Below are positions 259 through 6,125 of a stretch of 64,000 nucleotides of DNA, in pieces. Source of the stretch: Hydrogenophaga crocea (GTDB lineage Bacteria; Pseudomonadota; Gammaproteobacteria; Burkholderiales; Burkholderiaceae_C); NCBI RefSeq assembly GCF_011388215.1, contig NZ_CP049989.1:3658001-3722000 (forward strand), in the 5' to 3' direction. How positions within the stretch are numbered: the first letter of the stretch is position 1; the number at the start of each line of letters is the position of its first letter. The notes beneath the pieces were generated by a model, which did not search any database, had not been told where the DNA came from, and saw nothing but the letters and a program-made list of their open reading frames with translations. The position numbers and the translations under genes were made by a program.

Positions 259-858
259 ATGCTTTACGCCGTGAAGGATCTCGCCGAGGTGCGGGCTGGT
301 CATGCCTTCCGCGGCGGCGTGCCGGTGGCCGAGACCGGCAACGCCCGGGTGGTGCAAATGCGCGACATCTGCCTCGACAGCGGCGTGAACTGGGCCGGTG
401 TCGCCGCCACCCGCCTGCCGGCCACCGCGCGCGCGCCCGAGTGGCTGCAGAACGGCGACGTGCTGTTCGCTGCCCGGGGCGGCCGCAACTACGCGCTGTG
501 CCTGTCCGACGTGCCCGAGCGCACGCTGTGCGCGCAGTATTTCTTCGTACTCCGGCGCAAATCGCCGGCCGTGGTGCCCGAGTACCTGGCCTGGCACATC
601 AACCGGGCCCCGGGCCAGCGCTACCTCATGGGCAAAGCCGAGGGCACGGACCAGCTCAGCATCCGCCGCGCCGTGCTCGAAGACATGCCGGTGGCGCTGC
701 CCGACACCGAGCGGCAATGGCTGCTGGTGAACCTGGCCCGCGCCGCCGCCTGCGAGCGGCGCCGGCTCGAATCCCTGATCCGCCTGCGCGAGCAGGAACT
801 CGATGCGCTCGCGCACCAACTGCAGGCCGTGGCCCAATGCCCTGAACCCCATCCATGA
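259..858 (+). CDS. Half-size type I restriction specificity (S) protein, single TRD
   Basis: This 199-residue protein has the layout of half an HsdS subunit. It starts with a target-recognition domain (VKDLAEVRAGHAFRGG, then RVVQMRDI and GDVLFAARG), followed by the conserved SIRRAVLEDMPVALP segment and a C-terminal coiled coil of about 45 residues rich in Glu, Arg and Leu. A normal HsdS has two such units and about 400 residues. The frame stays open back to 178, but the ATG at 259 begins at the usual HsdS N-terminus. The stop overlaps the hsdM start as ATGA, so the two are probably translationally coupled. Half-S proteins can dimerise to form a full specificity unit, or can compete with a full HsdS; which applies here is unknown. 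Confidence 0.75.
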   Translation: MLYAVKDLAEVRAGHAFRGGVPVAETGNARVVQMRDICLDSGVNWAGVAATRLPATARAPEWLQNGDVLFAARGGRNYALCLSDVPERTLCAQYFFVLRRKSPAVVPEYLAWHINRAPGQRYLMGKAEGTDQLSIRRAVLEDMPVALPDTERQWLLVNLARAAACERRRLESLIRLREQELDALAHQLQAVAQCPEPHP

Positions 859-2366
859 ACGACACCGCCATCAGCCAGAACGCGATCAATGCCGCGGTCT
901 GGTCCGCCTGCGACACCTTCCGCGGTACGGTCGATCCCAGCATCTACAAGGACTACGTCCTCACGATGCTGTTCCTCAAGTACATCTCCGACGTCTGGCA
1001 CGACCACTACACGCGCTACCAGGCCGAGCACGGCGACCACCCGGAACTGATCGAGGAACTGCTCAAGAACGAGCGCTTCGTGCTGCCGCCCCAGGCCAGC
1101 TTCCCCGCGCTGCACGCCGCGCGCCACCTGCCCGGCAACGGCGAGCGCATCGACAAGGCGCTGCATGCGATCGAAGAGGCCAACCTCGGCAAGCTGCGTG
1201 ACGTGTTCCAGGACATCAGCTTCAACTCCAACAAGCTCGGCGACGAGGCCCAGAAGAACGACATTCTTCGCCACCTGCTCGAGGACTTCGCCGGCCCCGA
1301 GCTGAACCTGCGCGAGAGCCGGGTGGGCTCGCTCGACGTGATCGGCAACGCCTACGAATTCCTCATCAAGAACTTCGCCACCACCGCGGGCAAGAAGGCC
1401 GGCGAGTTCTACACGCCGCCCGAGGTGTCCATGCTGATGGCCCGGCTCATGGACCCGCAGCCCGGCGAGGAAATCTGCGACCCCACCTGCGGCTCGGGCT
1501 CGCTGCTCATGAAGTGCAGCCAGCTCATCCGCGCGCGCAGCGGCGGCCGGCGCTACGCGCTGTACGGCCAGGAGGCCATCGGCAGCACCTGGGCGCTGGC
1601 CAAGATGAACATGTTCCTGCACGCCGAAGACAACCACCGCATCGAATGGGGCGACACGCTGCGCAACCCGCGGCTGCTCGACAGCGAAGGTCGGCTCAAG
1701 CGCTTCGACATCGTGGTCGCCAACCCGCCGTTCTCGCTCGAGAAATGGGGCCACGAAGGCGCGGCCCACGACCCGCACCAGCGCTTTCGCCGCGGCATCC
1801 CGCCGCGCACCAAGGCCGACTACGCCTTCATCCTGCACATGGTCGAAACCATGAAACCCGATCGCGGCCGCATGGCGGTGGTGGTGCCGCACGGTGTGCT
1901 GTTCCGCGGCGCGGCCGAAGGCAAGATCCGCCGCCGGCTGATCGAGGAGAACCTGCTCGACGCCGTCATCGGCCTGCCCGAGAAGCTGTTCTACGGCACC
2001 GGCATTCCCGCGGCCATCCTGGTGCTGCGCCAGCGCAAGCCCGACGACACCGTGCTGTTCATCGACGCCAGCCGCAGCTACCAGGACGGCAAGAACCAGA
2101 ACCTGCTGCGCCCCCAGGACCTCGACACCATCATGGACACGGTGCAGGCGCGCCGCAGCGTCGACAAGTACGCCCACCTGGCCACCGCGGCCGAGATCGC
2201 GGGCCACGACTTCAACCTGAACATCCCGCGCTACGTGAACACCTTCGAAGCGGCCGAGCGCATCGACCTCTCGGCCGTGCGCGCCGAGCGACTGAAGCTG
2301 CAGGCCGAGCTCGCGGTGCTCGAACAGAAGATGGCCGGCTTCCTCAAGGAGCTCGGCTACGAATGA
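855..2366 (+). CDS. hsdM: Type I restriction-modification DNA methyltransferase subunit HsdM
   Basis: This is an N6-adenine methyltransferase subunit that modifies DNA in complex with HsdS. The N-terminal 150 residues match the helical HsdM_N domain (DPSIYKDYVLTMLFLKYISD). The SAM-binding motif I (DPTCGSGSLLMK) lies near residue 210 and the catalytic motif IV, NPPF, near residue 290. At 503 residues it has the usual length. It overlaps the half-S gene upstream and the hsdS gene downstream, both by four bases (ATGA), so half-S, M and S look like one tightly coupled transcript. All motifs needed for methylation are present. Confidence 0.95.
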   Translation: MNDTAISQNAINAAVWSACDTFRGTVDPSIYKDYVLTMLFLKYISDVWHDHYTRYQAEHGDHPELIEELLKNERFVLPPQASFPALHAARHLPGNGERIDKALHAIEEANLGKLRDVFQDISFNSNKLGDEAQKNDILRHLLEDFAGPELNLRESRVGSLDVIGNAYEFLIKNFATTAGKKAGEFYTPPEVSMLMARLMDPQPGEEICDPTCGSGSLLMKCSQLIRARSGGRRYALYGQEAIGSTWALAKMNMFLHAEDNHRIEWGDTLRNPRLLDSEGRLKRFDIVVANPPFSLEKWGHEGAAHDPHQRFRRGIPPRTKADYAFILHMVETMKPDRGRMAVVVPHGVLFRGAAEGKIRRRLIEENLLDAVIGLPEKLFYGTGIPAAILVLRQRKPDDTVLFIDASRSYQDGKNQNLLRPQDLDTIMDTVQARRSVDKYAHLATAAEIAGHDFNLNIPRYVNTFEAAERIDLSAVRAERLKLQAELAVLEQKMAGFLKELGYE

Positions 2367-3625
2367 GGCGAAACATGCTGCCTGAAGGCTGGAGCCGTTG
2401 CCGGCTCGGCGACCTGATGGCGTTCCGCAACGGCTTGAACTACACGCGCAACGAGAGCGGCGAGTGCATCAAGGTGGTGGGCGTGAGCGACTTCCGCGCG
2501 CGCACCGTGCTCGACGGCGCCGCCGGGCTCGACACCGTGGCCCTGCGCGATCGCGTGGGCCCCCAAGACCTGCTGCAGGCCGGCGACCTGCTGTTCGTGC
2601 GCTCCAACGGCAACAAGGCGCTGGTGGGCCGCTGCCTGTTCGTCGCGCGGCTCGACGAGCCCGTGACCTTCTCGGGCTTCACCATCCGCGGCCGCGTCAC
2701 CTCGCCGCGGCTGGACCCGGCCTTCGCGTCGGAGCTCATGCGCACGGCACGCACCGTGGCACAAATGCACCTGGGCGGCAGCGGCACCAACATCAGCAAC
2801 CTGAGCCAGGACATCCTGCAGAACGTCGAGGTCTGCCTGCCCGGGGTGGGCGAGCAGCGCCGCATCGTGCGCGTGCTGGCCACCTGGCGCGAGGCCATCG
2901 ACGCCACCGACAACCTGCTCGAGAACGCGCGGCGCGAAAAGCACGACCTGATGCAGGCCTTGCTGTCGGGCCGCGTCGCCGCGCTGCAGCAGCGCGGCGC
3001 CTGGGAGCAGGTGGAGTTCGACGACGTCTTCGAGCGCGTGGCGCGCAAGAACGACGAAGGCAGCAGCAACGTGCTCACCATCTCGGCCCAGCACGGCCTG
3101 GTGAGCCAGCGCGACTTCTTCCACAAGAACGTGGCGAGCGAAGACCTGAGCCACTACACCTACCTGAGCACGGGCGACTTCGCCTACAACAAGAGCGCCT
3201 CCGCGGGCTACCCGGTGGGCGCCATCAAGCCGCTCGTGGCGCACGACTCGGGCGTGGTCTCGAGCCTGTACATCTGCTTCCGTCAGCGGTCCGACGCGCA
3301 GGTCGACGCCGACTTCTACCGCCACTACTTCGAGGCCGGCATGCTCAACGAGCCCATCGGCTTCATCGCCCAGGAGGGGGCGCGCAACCACGGCCTGCTC
3401 AACGTGAGCGTGAAAGACTTCTTCAAGCTGCCGCTGCACCTGCCCCCGCTGCCGGTGCAGCGGCGCATCGCCGAGGTGCTGGGCGTGGCCGAGGATTACG
3501 AGCATTCGGTCGCTGCGCAGGCGCGGGCGCTGCGCGACGAACTCGGCGCGTTGCGCGAAGACCTGCTGAGCGGCCAGCGGCGGCTGCGTCCGGTCGAGGA
3601 ACCCGGCGAGCCATGCCCCCGCTGA
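2363..3625 (+). CDS. hsdS: Type I restriction-modification specificity subunit HsdS, two TRDs
   Basis: This 420-residue full-length S subunit would confer DNA sequence specificity on HsdM and HsdR. Two target-recognition units are visible. The first runs from the start to about residue 170 (GWSRCRLGDLMAFRNG, GDLLFVRSNGN, LSQDILQNVEVCLP) and is followed by a helical spacer. The second starts near residue 215 (WEQVEFDDVFERVARKN) and ends with KDFFKLPLHLPPLPVQRRI and a second helix. The ATG at 2363 overlaps the hsdM stop; another in-frame ATG lies at 2375. It is followed seven bases later by the GTG of hsdR. Confidence 0.92.
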   Translation: MRRNMLPEGWSRCRLGDLMAFRNGLNYTRNESGECIKVVGVSDFRARTVLDGAAGLDTVALRDRVGPQDLLQAGDLLFVRSNGNKALVGRCLFVARLDEPVTFSGFTIRGRVTSPRLDPAFASELMRTARTVAQMHLGGSGTNISNLSQDILQNVEVCLPGVGEQRRIVRVLATWREAIDATDNLLENARREKHDLMQALLSGRVAALQQRGAWEQVEFDDVFERVARKNDEGSSNVLTISAQHGLVSQRDFFHKNVASEDLSHYTYLSTGDFAYNKSASAGYPVGAIKPLVAHDSGVVSSLYICFRQRSDAQVDADFYRHYFEAGMLNEPIGFIAQEGARNHGLLNVSVKDFFKLPLHLPPLPVQRRIAEVLGVAEDYEHSVAAQARALRDELGALREDLLSGQRRLRPVEEPGEPCPR

Positions 3626-3632
3626 GACCGGC

Positions 3633-6125
3633 GTGAGCGCGACCCCCGTCCCCGGGCGGCGCGGCCCCGTGGCCGCCTCGCTGGCCCTGCTCACGGCAAT
3701 GGGCTGGCGCCCGCTGAGCACGGCCGACGCGCGCCGGCTGCGTGGTGGCGTGCGCGACGCGGTGCTCAAGCCGCGCCTGATCGAAGCGCTTCAGGCGCAC
3801 CGCTTCGAGTACAAGGGCGAATACCACCCGCTGTCGCCCGGCGGCATCGACCAGGTGGTGCGCCAGGTGATGTCGCTGAACCTGCACGAGGGCCTGCTCG
3901 CGGCCAATGAGCGCTTCTACCGGCTGCTCACGCTGGGCGTGACCGTCACCGAGTTCATGCCCGACAGCAAGAAGCACCAGCCCACGGTGCCCTTGCTCGA
4001 CTGGCAGCGCCCCGAGGCCAATCTCTGGGACGTCTGCGAAGGCTTCGAGCTGCTGCCCGCGCGCGGCACCGAGCCGCTGCGCTGCGACCTGGTGGCCTGC
4101 GTGAACGGCCTGCCGCTGGCGGTGATCGAGTGCGCCGACACGGTAGAGGCCGCGGTGCAACGCCAGCGGCGCCGCCAGCGGCTCGACGCACTGCCCCAGC
4201 TGCATGCCTGCGCCCAGCTGCTGCTGGCGCTCGGATCGTCCGCCGCGGCGGGCGCGGGCGACGCGCGCTACGGCACCACGGGCACGCCGCCGCGCTGCTG
4301 GGCGCGCTGGCACGAAGGCCCGCCCGATCCGCTGGGGCCGGTGCACGCGCTGCTGTCGCCCGACCGCCTGCTCGAGCTGCTGCGCCACTTCGTGCTGTTC
4401 GACCGCCGCCTCGGCAAGGTCGTGGCGCGACCGCACCAGGTGTTCGGCGTGCGCGCGGTGCTGGCTCGCATCGCCCAGCGCCGGCCCGACGGCGCGCGCG
4501 AAGGCGGTGTGCTCTGGCACACCACGGGCTCGGGCAAGAGCTTCACCATGGTCTTCCTGACCAAGGCGCTGCTGCTGCACCCGGGCACCCAGGCCTGCCG
4601 CGTGATCGTGGTGACCGACCGGCTCGACCTCGAGAGCCAGCTCGCGCGCAACTTCCTCGAAAGCGGCGCCTTCGGCTCGGCGCTGGCCGACCGCGAGGGC
4701 GAGCGCGCGCGCGTGGCCTCGGGGCGCGAGCTGGCGCGGCGCATCGGCCAGGGCCGCGAGCGCATCATCTTCACGCTGGTGCAGAAGTTCGCCACGGCCT
4801 CGCGCCTGCCCGAATGCCGCAACCCCTCGGCCGACCTGATCGTGCTGGTGGACGAAGGCCACCGCAGCCAGGGCGGCGAGTGGCACGACCGCATGCGCAG
4901 GGCGCTGCCGCGGGCGGCCTACCTCGCCTTCACCGGCACACCGCTGCTCAAGCGCGAGAAAACCGCCAACCGCTTCGGCCCCATCCTGCACGCCTATACG
5001 CAGCAGCGCGCGGTGCGCGACGGCACCGTGGCGCCGCTGCTCTACGAAGAGCGCAAGCCGCGGCTGGCCAGCGGCGACGAGGCCGCGCGCCGCGTCGAGC
5101 GCATCGCGCGCGACATCGCGCAGCACTTCCACGACACCATCAAGACGCGCAGCCAGGGCCTCAAGGGCCAGGTCGCCACCGGCAGCAAGCTCGACGCCAT
5201 CCGCTACCAGCGCTGCCTCGACGACACCGGCCTGGTGAGCAGCGCGGTGCTGATCTCGCCGCCCGAGCGCCGCGAAGGCGTCAGCGAGGTCGACGAAAGC
5301 CAGCTGCTCGAGGTGCGGCACTGGTGGAACACCCACGTGGGCCGCGACGCCGAACGCTACGAGCAGAACCTGCTGCGCGACTTCGGCAGCGACGGCGCGC
5401 CCGACCTGCTCATCGTGGTCGACCGCCTGCTCACCGGTTTCGACGAGCCGCGCAACACGGTGCTCTACATCGACAAGCCGCTCAAGGAGCACCGCCTGAT
5501 CCAGGCCGTGGCGCGCGTGAACCGGCTGCACGAGGCCAAGCGCCACGGCCTGCTGGTGGACTACCGCGACATCCTGCGCGCGCTGGACACCGCCGTGCGC
5601 GACTACCAGGACCTCGCCACGCGCACCCAGGGCGGCTACGACATCGACGACATCGCCGGCCTGTACCGCGCGGTCGACCCGCGGTCGCCCGAGGACACGC
5701 CGGTGCGCGAGCCCAAGCGCATCTACGCCGTGCTGCCCGCCGACACGGTGCCCGACGACAGCGCCCGCGCGCGGCTGAAGCAGGCGATCGAGACCGCGCT
5801 CGCGCTCGATCCCGATGCCGAGAGCGGCTTCGAGGGCCGGCCGCTGGCGCGCGCCTGTTACGGCATCGTGCGCCTGGCCGCGGCGCGGCCCGGCGGCCCG
5901 CCGCTGCCCGCCACGGCCACGCTGATCGAACAGGCCCGCGCCATGGACACCGAAGTGCGCAACATCGTGGCCGAGCATTCGCTCAACCCGCAGGATCTCG
6001 ACGCCGCGGTGCGCCAGGCCTTGCTGCCGCGGCTGTTCGCGCTGCTGGGGCTCGAGCGGGCCCGGCTCGCGGTCGCGCAGGTGATCGAGCTCGCGCGCGA
6101 AGGCCTGGCGCGCGAGAGCGACTGA
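3633..6125 (+). CDS. hsdR: Type I restriction HsdR subunit, nuclease active site apparently degenerate
   Basis: HsdR provides DNA translocation and cleavage in a type I complex. The motor is intact: Walker A TTGSGKS near residue 300, motif II VDEGHRS near 405, FTGTP near 432, and the later motifs RLLTGFDEP and QAVARVNRLH. The N-terminal nuclease segment aligns through the family signature VNGLPL. The usual D..E.K becomes D152...E166-C-A168, so the catalytic Lys is Ala. The following QxxxY motif reads QLHAC (189-193), without the Tyr. At 830 residues it is shorter than typical enzymes of about 1000. Translation starts at GTG 3633, seven bases after hsdS. I infer a translocating but non-cleaving protein, unless another site replaces it. 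Confidence 0.92.
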   Translation: MSATPVPGRRGPVAASLALLTAMGWRPLSTADARRLRGGVRDAVLKPRLIEALQAHRFEYKGEYHPLSPGGIDQVVRQVMSLNLHEGLLAANERFYRLLTLGVTVTEFMPDSKKHQPTVPLLDWQRPEANLWDVCEGFELLPARGTEPLRCDLVACVNGLPLAVIECADTVEAAVQRQRRRQRLDALPQLHACAQLLLALGSSAAAGAGDARYGTTGTPPRCWARWHEGPPDPLGPVHALLSPDRLLELLRHFVLFDRRLGKVVARPHQVFGVRAVLARIAQRRPDGAREGGVLWHTTGSGKSFTMVFLTKALLLHPGTQACRVIVVTDRLDLESQLARNFLESGAFGSALADREGERARVASGRELARRIGQGRERIIFTLVQKFATASRLPECRNPSADLIVLVDEGHRSQGGEWHDRMRRALPRAAYLAFTGTPLLKREKTANRFGPILHAYTQQRAVRDGTVAPLLYEERKPRLASGDEAARRVERIARDIAQHFHDTIKTRSQGLKGQVATGSKLDAIRYQRCLDDTGLVSSAVLISPPERREGVSEVDESQLLEVRHWWNTHVGRDAERYEQNLLRDFGSDGAPDLLIVVDRLLTGFDEPRNTVLYIDKPLKEHRLIQAVARVNRLHEAKRHGLLVDYRDILRALDTAVRDYQDLATRTQGGYDIDDIAGLYRAVDPRSPEDTPVREPKRIYAVLPADTVPDDSARARLKQAIETALALDPDAESGFEGRPLARACYGIVRLAAARPGGPPLPATATLIEQARAMDTEVRNIVAEHSLNPQDLDAAVRQALLPRLFALLGLERARLAVAQVIELAREGLARESD

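What the first reader, a model, noticed from the sequence alone, without database searches (positions are those of the whole stretch)
4083..4211. HsdR has an intact motor but a degenerate nuclease active site
Anchored on VNGLPL, the PD-(D/E)xK nuclease of type I R subunits should read D...E-x-K and then QxxxY. Here D152 and E166 remain, but the catalytic Lys is Ala168 (E-C-A) and the Tyr of QxxxY is Cys193 (QLHAC). All helicase motifs are kept and the frame is open for 830 codons, so this is not a decaying pseudogene. It could be a translocase without DNA cleavage, with modification still active and perhaps another role for the motor.
Basis: partly seen in the sequence, partly recalled or inferred. 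Interest (0 to 1): 0.7.

Follow-up and report, generated by a model that had tools for sequence, protein, structure and literature searches.

The report
Restriction motor with a dead nuclease
A bacterial DNA-defence enzyme of a Hydrogenophaga-type bacterium has lost the residue it needs to cut DNA while its DNA-pulling motor and its DNA-marking partner genes look intact, and relatives show that this loss is inherited and has happened several times.

Summary
Confirmed, with one correction. The HsdR at 3633-6125 keeps D152 and E166, but the catalytic Lys is Ala168, and residues 115-261 hold no Lys. It is no one-off: six HsdR clusters without the Lys form one clade (support 1.0), two also lacking the Asp, and three Hydrogenophaga genomes carry the operon at the same chromosomal place. 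Between the clade's halves the nuclease core has diverged about twice as much as expected, while motor motifs are nearly unchanged and motor dN/dS (0.30-0.54) lies below neutral simulations, though above Lys-bearing sisters (bin means 0.12-0.20). By parsimony a Variovorax-type clade lost the Lys four more times. Best reading: a Type I system that methylates and may still run its motor but does not cut. Main rival: slow decay towards a lone methyltransferase. No activity was tested.

The parts
259..858 (+). half-HsdS-like gene (199 aa, one specificity-type half); present in Lys-bearing sister operons too
   Evidence: PADLOC Specificity_I 3.2e-21; no Pfam match at the cut-off; conserved next to hsdM
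855..2366 (+). hsdM, N6-adenine methyltransferase subunit, motif I DPTCGSGS and motif IV NPPF intact
   Evidence: Pfam N6_Mtase and HsdM_N, TIGR00497; motifs
2375..3625 (+). hsdS, specificity subunit (416 aa)
   Evidence: Pfam Methylase_S, PADLOC Specificity_I 3.8e-89
3633..6125 (+). hsdR, 830 aa (GTG start), R subunit with a broken nuclease site and intact motor motifs
   Evidence: Pfam HSDR_N, SWI2_SNF2, T1R_D3-like; TIGR00348 339.2 bits over cut-off 284.55
4086..4088 (+). D152, retained metal-site Asp (EcoR124I D151)
4128..4136 (+). E166-C167-A168, in place of E-x-K (EcoR124I E165-L-K167)
4161..4175 (+). R177-Q-R-R-R181, the position of QxxxY (QxxxN in sisters)
4197..4211 (+).
4521..4544 (+). 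Walker A region of the motor (TTGSGKSF, residues 297-304)

Best explanation
This is a Type I restriction-modification operon (half-S, hsdM, hsdS, hsdR) whose R subunit has lost its nuclease active site but keeps a selected SF2 motor. Shown by sequence: loss of the catalytic Lys and of the Q of QxxxY, inherited in a clade; intact motor and methyltransferase motifs; purifying selection on the motor. Inferred: the M2S core methylates its target, R still docks and uses ATP to translocate or remodel DNA at unmodified sites, and nothing is cut. The most likely benefit is a methylation-reading motor without the danger of self-cleavage, for instance hindering or clearing proteins on incoming unmodified DNA; that last step is speculation.
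For: The Lys-less clade of six clusters has support 1.0 in trees built without the nuclease-core columns. At the Lys it has A, A, A, R, Q, P; the Asp is G in 2 of 6; the Q of QxxxY is R in 6 of 6. EcoR124I K167A: no cleavage, restriction largely gone, main population at 577 against 588 bp/s (PMC2602864). Three Hydrogenophaga genomes hold the operon in one syntenic place, and their motor motifs differ at 1-2 of 46 positions against 92-114 of 370 elsewhere in the motor. Motor dN/dS 0.54, 0.45, 0.30 against neutral means of 1.15-1.84, minimum 0.89. Core distance in short-versus-long pairs 0.42-0.51; at matched motor distance Lys-bearing pairs average 0.24-0.26 with maximum 0.345, for the 8 of 9 such pairs that had enough comparators. 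The own genome holds a single HSDR_N match, so no other R subunit of that family is there to serve the methyltransferase.
Against: Motor constraint is weaker than in Lys-bearing sisters: their dN/dS bin means are 0.12-0.20, maximum 0.32, in the 231 of 276 pairs listed; motor/HsdM distance ratio 1.87-2.23 against 1.25 (sd 0.21, maximum 1.70; n=115 matched pairs; maximum 2.27 over all 226 pairs). The window subclade has lost most of the region after the motor, where EcoR124I has the helical domain that takes part in ATPase and translocation (PMC5248579, abstract); I place the loss there by its position, not by structure. EcoR124I K167A also had a slow sub-population (345 bp/s), shorter lifetimes and 0.63 of the ATPase rate. 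Within each half of the clade the core is not outside the Lys-bearing range (6 of 15 pairs). Related loci do decay further (L018, L108, L109).
Confidence: 0.6

Rival explanations
1. Slow decay. Restriction was lost first because it is costly; HsdR is now eroding and the operon is on its way to a lone methyltransferase. The remaining constraint on the motor reflects earlier selection or a merely structural role.
For: Motor dN/dS is about 1.8 and 2.7 times the matching Lys-bearing bin mean for the two pairs that fall in a bin with data; large C-terminal deletions in P0001-P0003; the Variovorax loci can be ordered from HsdS loss to Lys loss to HsdM NPPF-to-HPPF (L108, L109), and the Herminiimonas locus L018 has broken motor motifs as well.
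Against: Motor dN/dS in all three Hydrogenophaga pairs lies below every neutral simulation, so selection acted during that divergence; HsdS and HsdM are open and HsdM motifs intact in all three; the HsdR frame is open in all six clusters.
Confidence: 0.27
2. The complex still cuts: Arg177-Arg181 or another residue takes over the Lys role, or a separate nuclease acts in trans on DNA held by the motor.
For: R177 is a shared change of the six-member clade; helix 171-181 starts three residues after A168 in the model; D and E remain in 4 of 6.
Against: No Lys in residues 115-261; the Asp is lost in 2 of 6 and the core has diverged; I saw no nuclease gene specific to the Lys-less operons: half-S and the DUF3892 neighbour also sit beside Lys-bearing operons. 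The rest of the genome was not searched for nucleases.
Confidence: 0.08
3. The dead R subunit is a dominant-negative: it occupies methyltransferase complexes, so that an incoming Type I system of the same family cannot restrict the host.
For: EcoR124I K167A raised plating of phage on an r+ host to 1.0, i.e. it is trans-dominant (PMC2602864, Table 1); Lys-bearing systems of the family occur in the same genus (4 of the 8 genomes with a match, 1 unread).
Against: No second HSDR_N in the own genome to act on; whether R subunits mix across systems was not testable here.
Confidence: 0.05

Closest known systems
EcoR124I HsdR (Type IC R subunit, PDB 2w00, 6h2j)
   Same: Same order of nuclease and SF2 motor; Foldseek ranks 1-16 are all chains of EcoR124I entries; sequence match 3.1e-31.
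   Different: K167 is Ala168; QxxxY is RxxxR; most of the region after the motor is missing.
EcoR124I K167A laboratory mutant
   Same: The same substitution in the same motif; no cleavage, main population at the wild-type translocation rate (PMC2602864).
   Different: Made in the laboratory; here it is natural, inherited in a clade and joined by further deletions.
Lys-bearing betaproteobacterial HsdR of about 1093 aa (P0005 and others)
   Same: Closest relatives with the Lys, 60-66% identical in the 72-row alignment; same operon type with half-S, hsdM, hsdS.
   Different: They keep E-A-K and QxxxN and the full C-terminal region.

Membership tests
Type I restriction-modification system | hsdM, hsdS and hsdR in one operon | tested here: met
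Type I restriction-modification system | HsdR family profile above the curated cut-off | tested here: met
   TIGR00348 339.2 bits over 284.55; Pfam HSDR_N 86.1 over 25.1
Type I restriction-modification system | SF2 motor motifs in HsdR | tested here: met
Type I restriction-modification system | D...ExK nuclease site in HsdR | tested here: not met
   D152 and E166 kept, Lys is Ala168, no Lys in 115-261
Type I restriction-modification system | QxxxY motif | tested here: not met
   R177xxxR181; the Tyr is Asn in Lys-bearing sisters
Type I restriction-modification system | ATP-dependent translocation and distant cleavage | not testable with these tools
   needs biochemistry
solitary (orphan) Type I methyltransferase | hsdM/hsdS without an intact hsdR gene | tested here: not met
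   hsdR is an open 830-codon frame whose motor is under purifying selection

The most novel reading that the evidence does not exclude
A natural, lineage-conserved class of Type I systems has given up cleavage for good and works as a methylation-directed DNA translocase; by parsimony the conversion arose about six times in these betaproteobacterial HsdR lineages, which would make the motor, not the nuclease, the selected part.
Probability: 0.3. Interest if true: 0.78.

Novelty: new variant of a known kind. Interest (0 to 1): 0.52.

Why it matters
If the motor still runs, these are natural non-cutting Type I motors: they would show that a restriction enzyme can be kept for something other than cleavage, and they give ready variants for asking what translocation alone does to phage or plasmid DNA. 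If instead they are decaying, the graded series (intact, Lys lost, methyltransferase motif lost, motor broken) suggests in which order a Type I system may be taken apart. Either way, presence of an hsdR gene or a profile hit is not evidence of restriction, which matters for automatic defence-system counts: PADLOC and TIGR00348 both call this gene a Type I restriction enzyme.

Tried and rejected
Sequencing error or assembly artefact: rejected, because the genome is one contig, P0002 (91% identical, from another contig) has the same E-C-A, and the clade shares the loss. Lys shifted nearby: rejected, no Lys in 115-261. A nuclease gene specific to the Lys-less operons: none seen; half-S, DUF3892 and the 120-aa MDD..QIHIP neighbour also occur beside the Lys-bearing operon of G306. 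Absence of full HsdS as the common cause: fits the Variovorax loci (7 of 7 Lys-less loci without an HsdS hit, 3 of 6 Lys-bearing loci with one) but not Hydrogenophaga, where HsdS is present; HsdS was sought with only three Hydrogenophaga HsdS queries, and the 1050-bp gap of L107 holds a 348-aa open frame without a hit. Metal-site geometry from the model: could not be done, the model (mean pLDDT 73, pTM 0.58) came without coordinates in the Python box and Foldseek gave no residue alignment. Papers: nine searches ran (listings only) and I saw no natural HsdR without a nuclease site in the listed titles and abstract openings; a word search inside the Type I review PMC3874165 found none of my six terms, and passages of PMC12707154 did not bear on it. 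Subscription journals and preprints are mostly not held. The first gene-calling runs were a script error and a badly trained model, replaced. In one search the Lys lists for P0003 and P0104 are invalid (anchor string absent) and were not used. Searches give slightly different motor dN/dS (0.51, 0.45, 0.31 and 0.54, 0.45, 0.30) because the alignments differ.

Full report
What is there. The window begins with a Type I restriction-modification operon on the + strand: a half-HsdS-like gene (259-858), hsdM (855-2366), hsdS (2375-3625) and hsdR (3633-6125, GTG start, 830 codons); genes overlap or lie a few bases apart. HsdR passes the curated cut-offs of TIGR00348 and Pfam HSDR_N. HsdM has DPTCGSGS and NPPF. 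The window's genome is one 4.56-Mb contig. I infer that it belongs to Hydrogenophaga: genomes G330 and G302 of its own genus hold contigs with exactly the lengths of two named Hydrogenophaga records, a MAG (CS4-C022) and H. borbori LA-38.

The active site. D152 and E166 are kept and the Lys is Ala168. A profile of 72 homologues aligned to EcoR124I places E166-C-A opposite E165-L-K167 and the family's Q-x-x-x-N opposite Q179-x-x-x-Y183; in the window these are R177 and R181. The single-sequence alignment shifts this by one residue, so the Q position rests on the profile. There is no Lys between residues 115 and 261. In the predicted structure the strands 149-157 and 160-168 and the helix 171-181 carry these residues with good local confidence (block means 79-96 for residues 11-200), but the whole model is only moderate (mean pLDDT 73, pTM 0.58) and the metal site could not be measured. 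Foldseek ranks 1-16 are all chains of EcoR124I entries (TM about 0.4 for the whole chain).

It is inherited. Three protein searches (queries window HsdR, P0056 and the HsdR of L017; the best 120 listed each, out of 3752, 6902 and 5274 significant hits) gave 255 distinct proteins. 232 have Lys and 23 do not. The query choice enriches for Lys-less ones. Outside that set, 30 top-scoring and 20 hand-picked mid-scoring HSDR_N loci from 150 genomes of the phylum gave 45 of 45 readable sites with Lys and 5 unread. In trees built without the nuclease-core columns, P0001 (window), P0002, P0003, P0004, P0011 and P0056 form one clade with support 1.0. Their residues at the Lys are A, A, A, R, Q, P, at the Asp D, D, G, D, D, G, and at the Q of QxxxY always R. 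E-C-A itself occurs only in P0001 and P0002 among the 255.

Same place, three genomes. In the genus 8 of 67 genomes matched at 1e-50: 3 Lys-less (window, G302, G330), 4 with Lys, 1 unread. The three Lys-less operons share the order DoxX, hemerythrin, a 120-aa protein, a DUF3892 protein, half-S, hsdM, hsdS, hsdR. The Lys-bearing operon of G306 has the same upstream neighbours. Trees of HsdM and of HsdR both place the Lys-less three together inside the Lys-bearing betaproteobacterial group.

Selection. In the 9 short-versus-long pairs of the clade the nuclease core (residues 146-200) differs at 42-51% of sites; for the 8 with enough comparators, Lys-bearing pairs at the same motor distance average 24-26% with maximum 34.5%. 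The 6 pairs within each half lie inside the Lys-bearing range, and the N-terminal lobe lies inside it throughout. Motor motifs differ at 1-2 of 46 positions against 92-114 of 370 elsewhere (p 1e-4 to 5e-6). Motor dN/dS (NG86) is 0.54, 0.45, 0.30 and hsdM in the same genomes 0.21, 0.18, 0.14; neutral simulations at GC 0.95 and 0.70 gave means of 1.15-1.84, minimum 0.89. So the motor was under selection. But Lys-bearing pairs have bin means of 0.12-0.20, maximum 0.32, in the 231 of 276 pairs listed, and the motor/HsdM distance ratio is 1.87-2.23 against 1.25 in 115 matched pairs (maximum 1.70; over all 226 pairs maximum 2.27). Constraint is therefore reduced. The open frame alone says little: with GC at 0.95 a neutral 416-codon frame gained about one stop, with GC at 0.70 two to five (insertions and deletions were not simulated).

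Further reduction. The long half (P0004, P0011, P0056) has lost 38-39 residues between nuclease and motor. The window half (P0001-P0003) has a similar loss there and has also lost 9 residues after E-C-A, 33 in the motor linker, and roughly 170-180 after the motor. By position this is the helical domain of EcoR124I, which takes part in translocation, cleavage and ATPase (PMC5248579, abstract and passages); I did not test the correspondence by structure.

What the change does. In EcoR124I, K167A gave no cleavage; plating was 0.1 in an r- host (wild type 0.001) and 1.0 in an r+ host (trans-dominant); translocation was 577 against 588 bp/s with a slow sub-population at 345 bp/s, lifetimes were shorter and relative ATPase 0.63 (PMC2602864, passages and tables). 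So the substitution seen here removes cutting and can leave the motor running. Why plating was 0.1 rather than 1 without cleavage is not explained in the passages that I saw. Whether the window's motor runs is inferred.

A second set. Searching with the HsdR of L017 showed a Variovorax-type clade of 30 proteins (support 0.999) in which 16 lack the Lys in four separate branches (one with support 0.744) and 5 lack the Asp. In the whole tree there are 6 separate Lys-less groups, 6 changes by parsimony, two of them single proteins (P0065, P0146). In 13 loci of that genus (L017, L099-L110), 7 Lys-less operons have no HsdS hit between hsdM and hsdR, and 3 of 6 Lys-bearing ones have one, of which two look like remnants (248 and 708 bp gaps). 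L108 and L109 have HPPF in HsdM, and the Herminiimonas locus L018 has HLPF and broken motor motifs. This looks like stepwise decay and is the reason why decay remains a serious rival for the window too.

Verdict. My estimates: loss of the nuclease about 0.92, selection on the motor about 0.8, a working non-cutting motor about even; 0.6 for the stated explanation overall. It is a new variant of a known kind: a natural, lineage-conserved R subunit without a nuclease site. None of the nine paper searches that ran listed a report of this (listings only).

Noticed in passing
window 259-858; L045, L046, L009, L010, L057 and others: A half-HsdS-like gene of about 200 aa sits directly before hsdM in 27 of the 30 loci, Lys-bearing or not; Pfam does not recognise it at the cut-off, PADLOC does.
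   Followed up: partly
L099-L110 and L017 (Variovorax-type loci beside a glyceraldehyde-phosphate-dehydrogenase-like gene): HsdS between hsdM and hsdR gave no hit in 10 of 13 and looks like fragments in 2 more, while hsdM and hsdR stay; half-S may be the only specificity subunit left.
   Followed up: partly
L108, L109: HsdM motif IV is HPPF instead of NPPF while the HsdR motor motifs are largely kept: methyltransferase and nuclease both look dead, the motor does not.
   Followed up: partly
L018 (Herminiimonas MAG) 1098-5211: Half-S, HsdM (HLPF) and a 657-codon HsdR with broken motor motifs, all as open frames: an end stage of decay or a different function.
   Followed up: no
L044 11457-11822 and 11840-12142: A 121-aa protein without a Pfam match and a divergent DUF3892 protein lie before the operon in all three Lys-less Hydrogenophaga loci and in the Lys-bearing G306; a DUF3892 relative also precedes the operon in L009, L010 and L058.
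   Followed up: partly
P0065 (1045 aa, E-A-S): An isolated single protein with the Lys replaced by Ser but QxxxN kept.
   Followed up: no
EcoR124I K167A, PMC2602864 Table 1: Plating of 0.1 rather than 1 in the r- host although no cleavage was seen; possibly a block by the motor alone, not explained in the passages seen.
   Followed up: no
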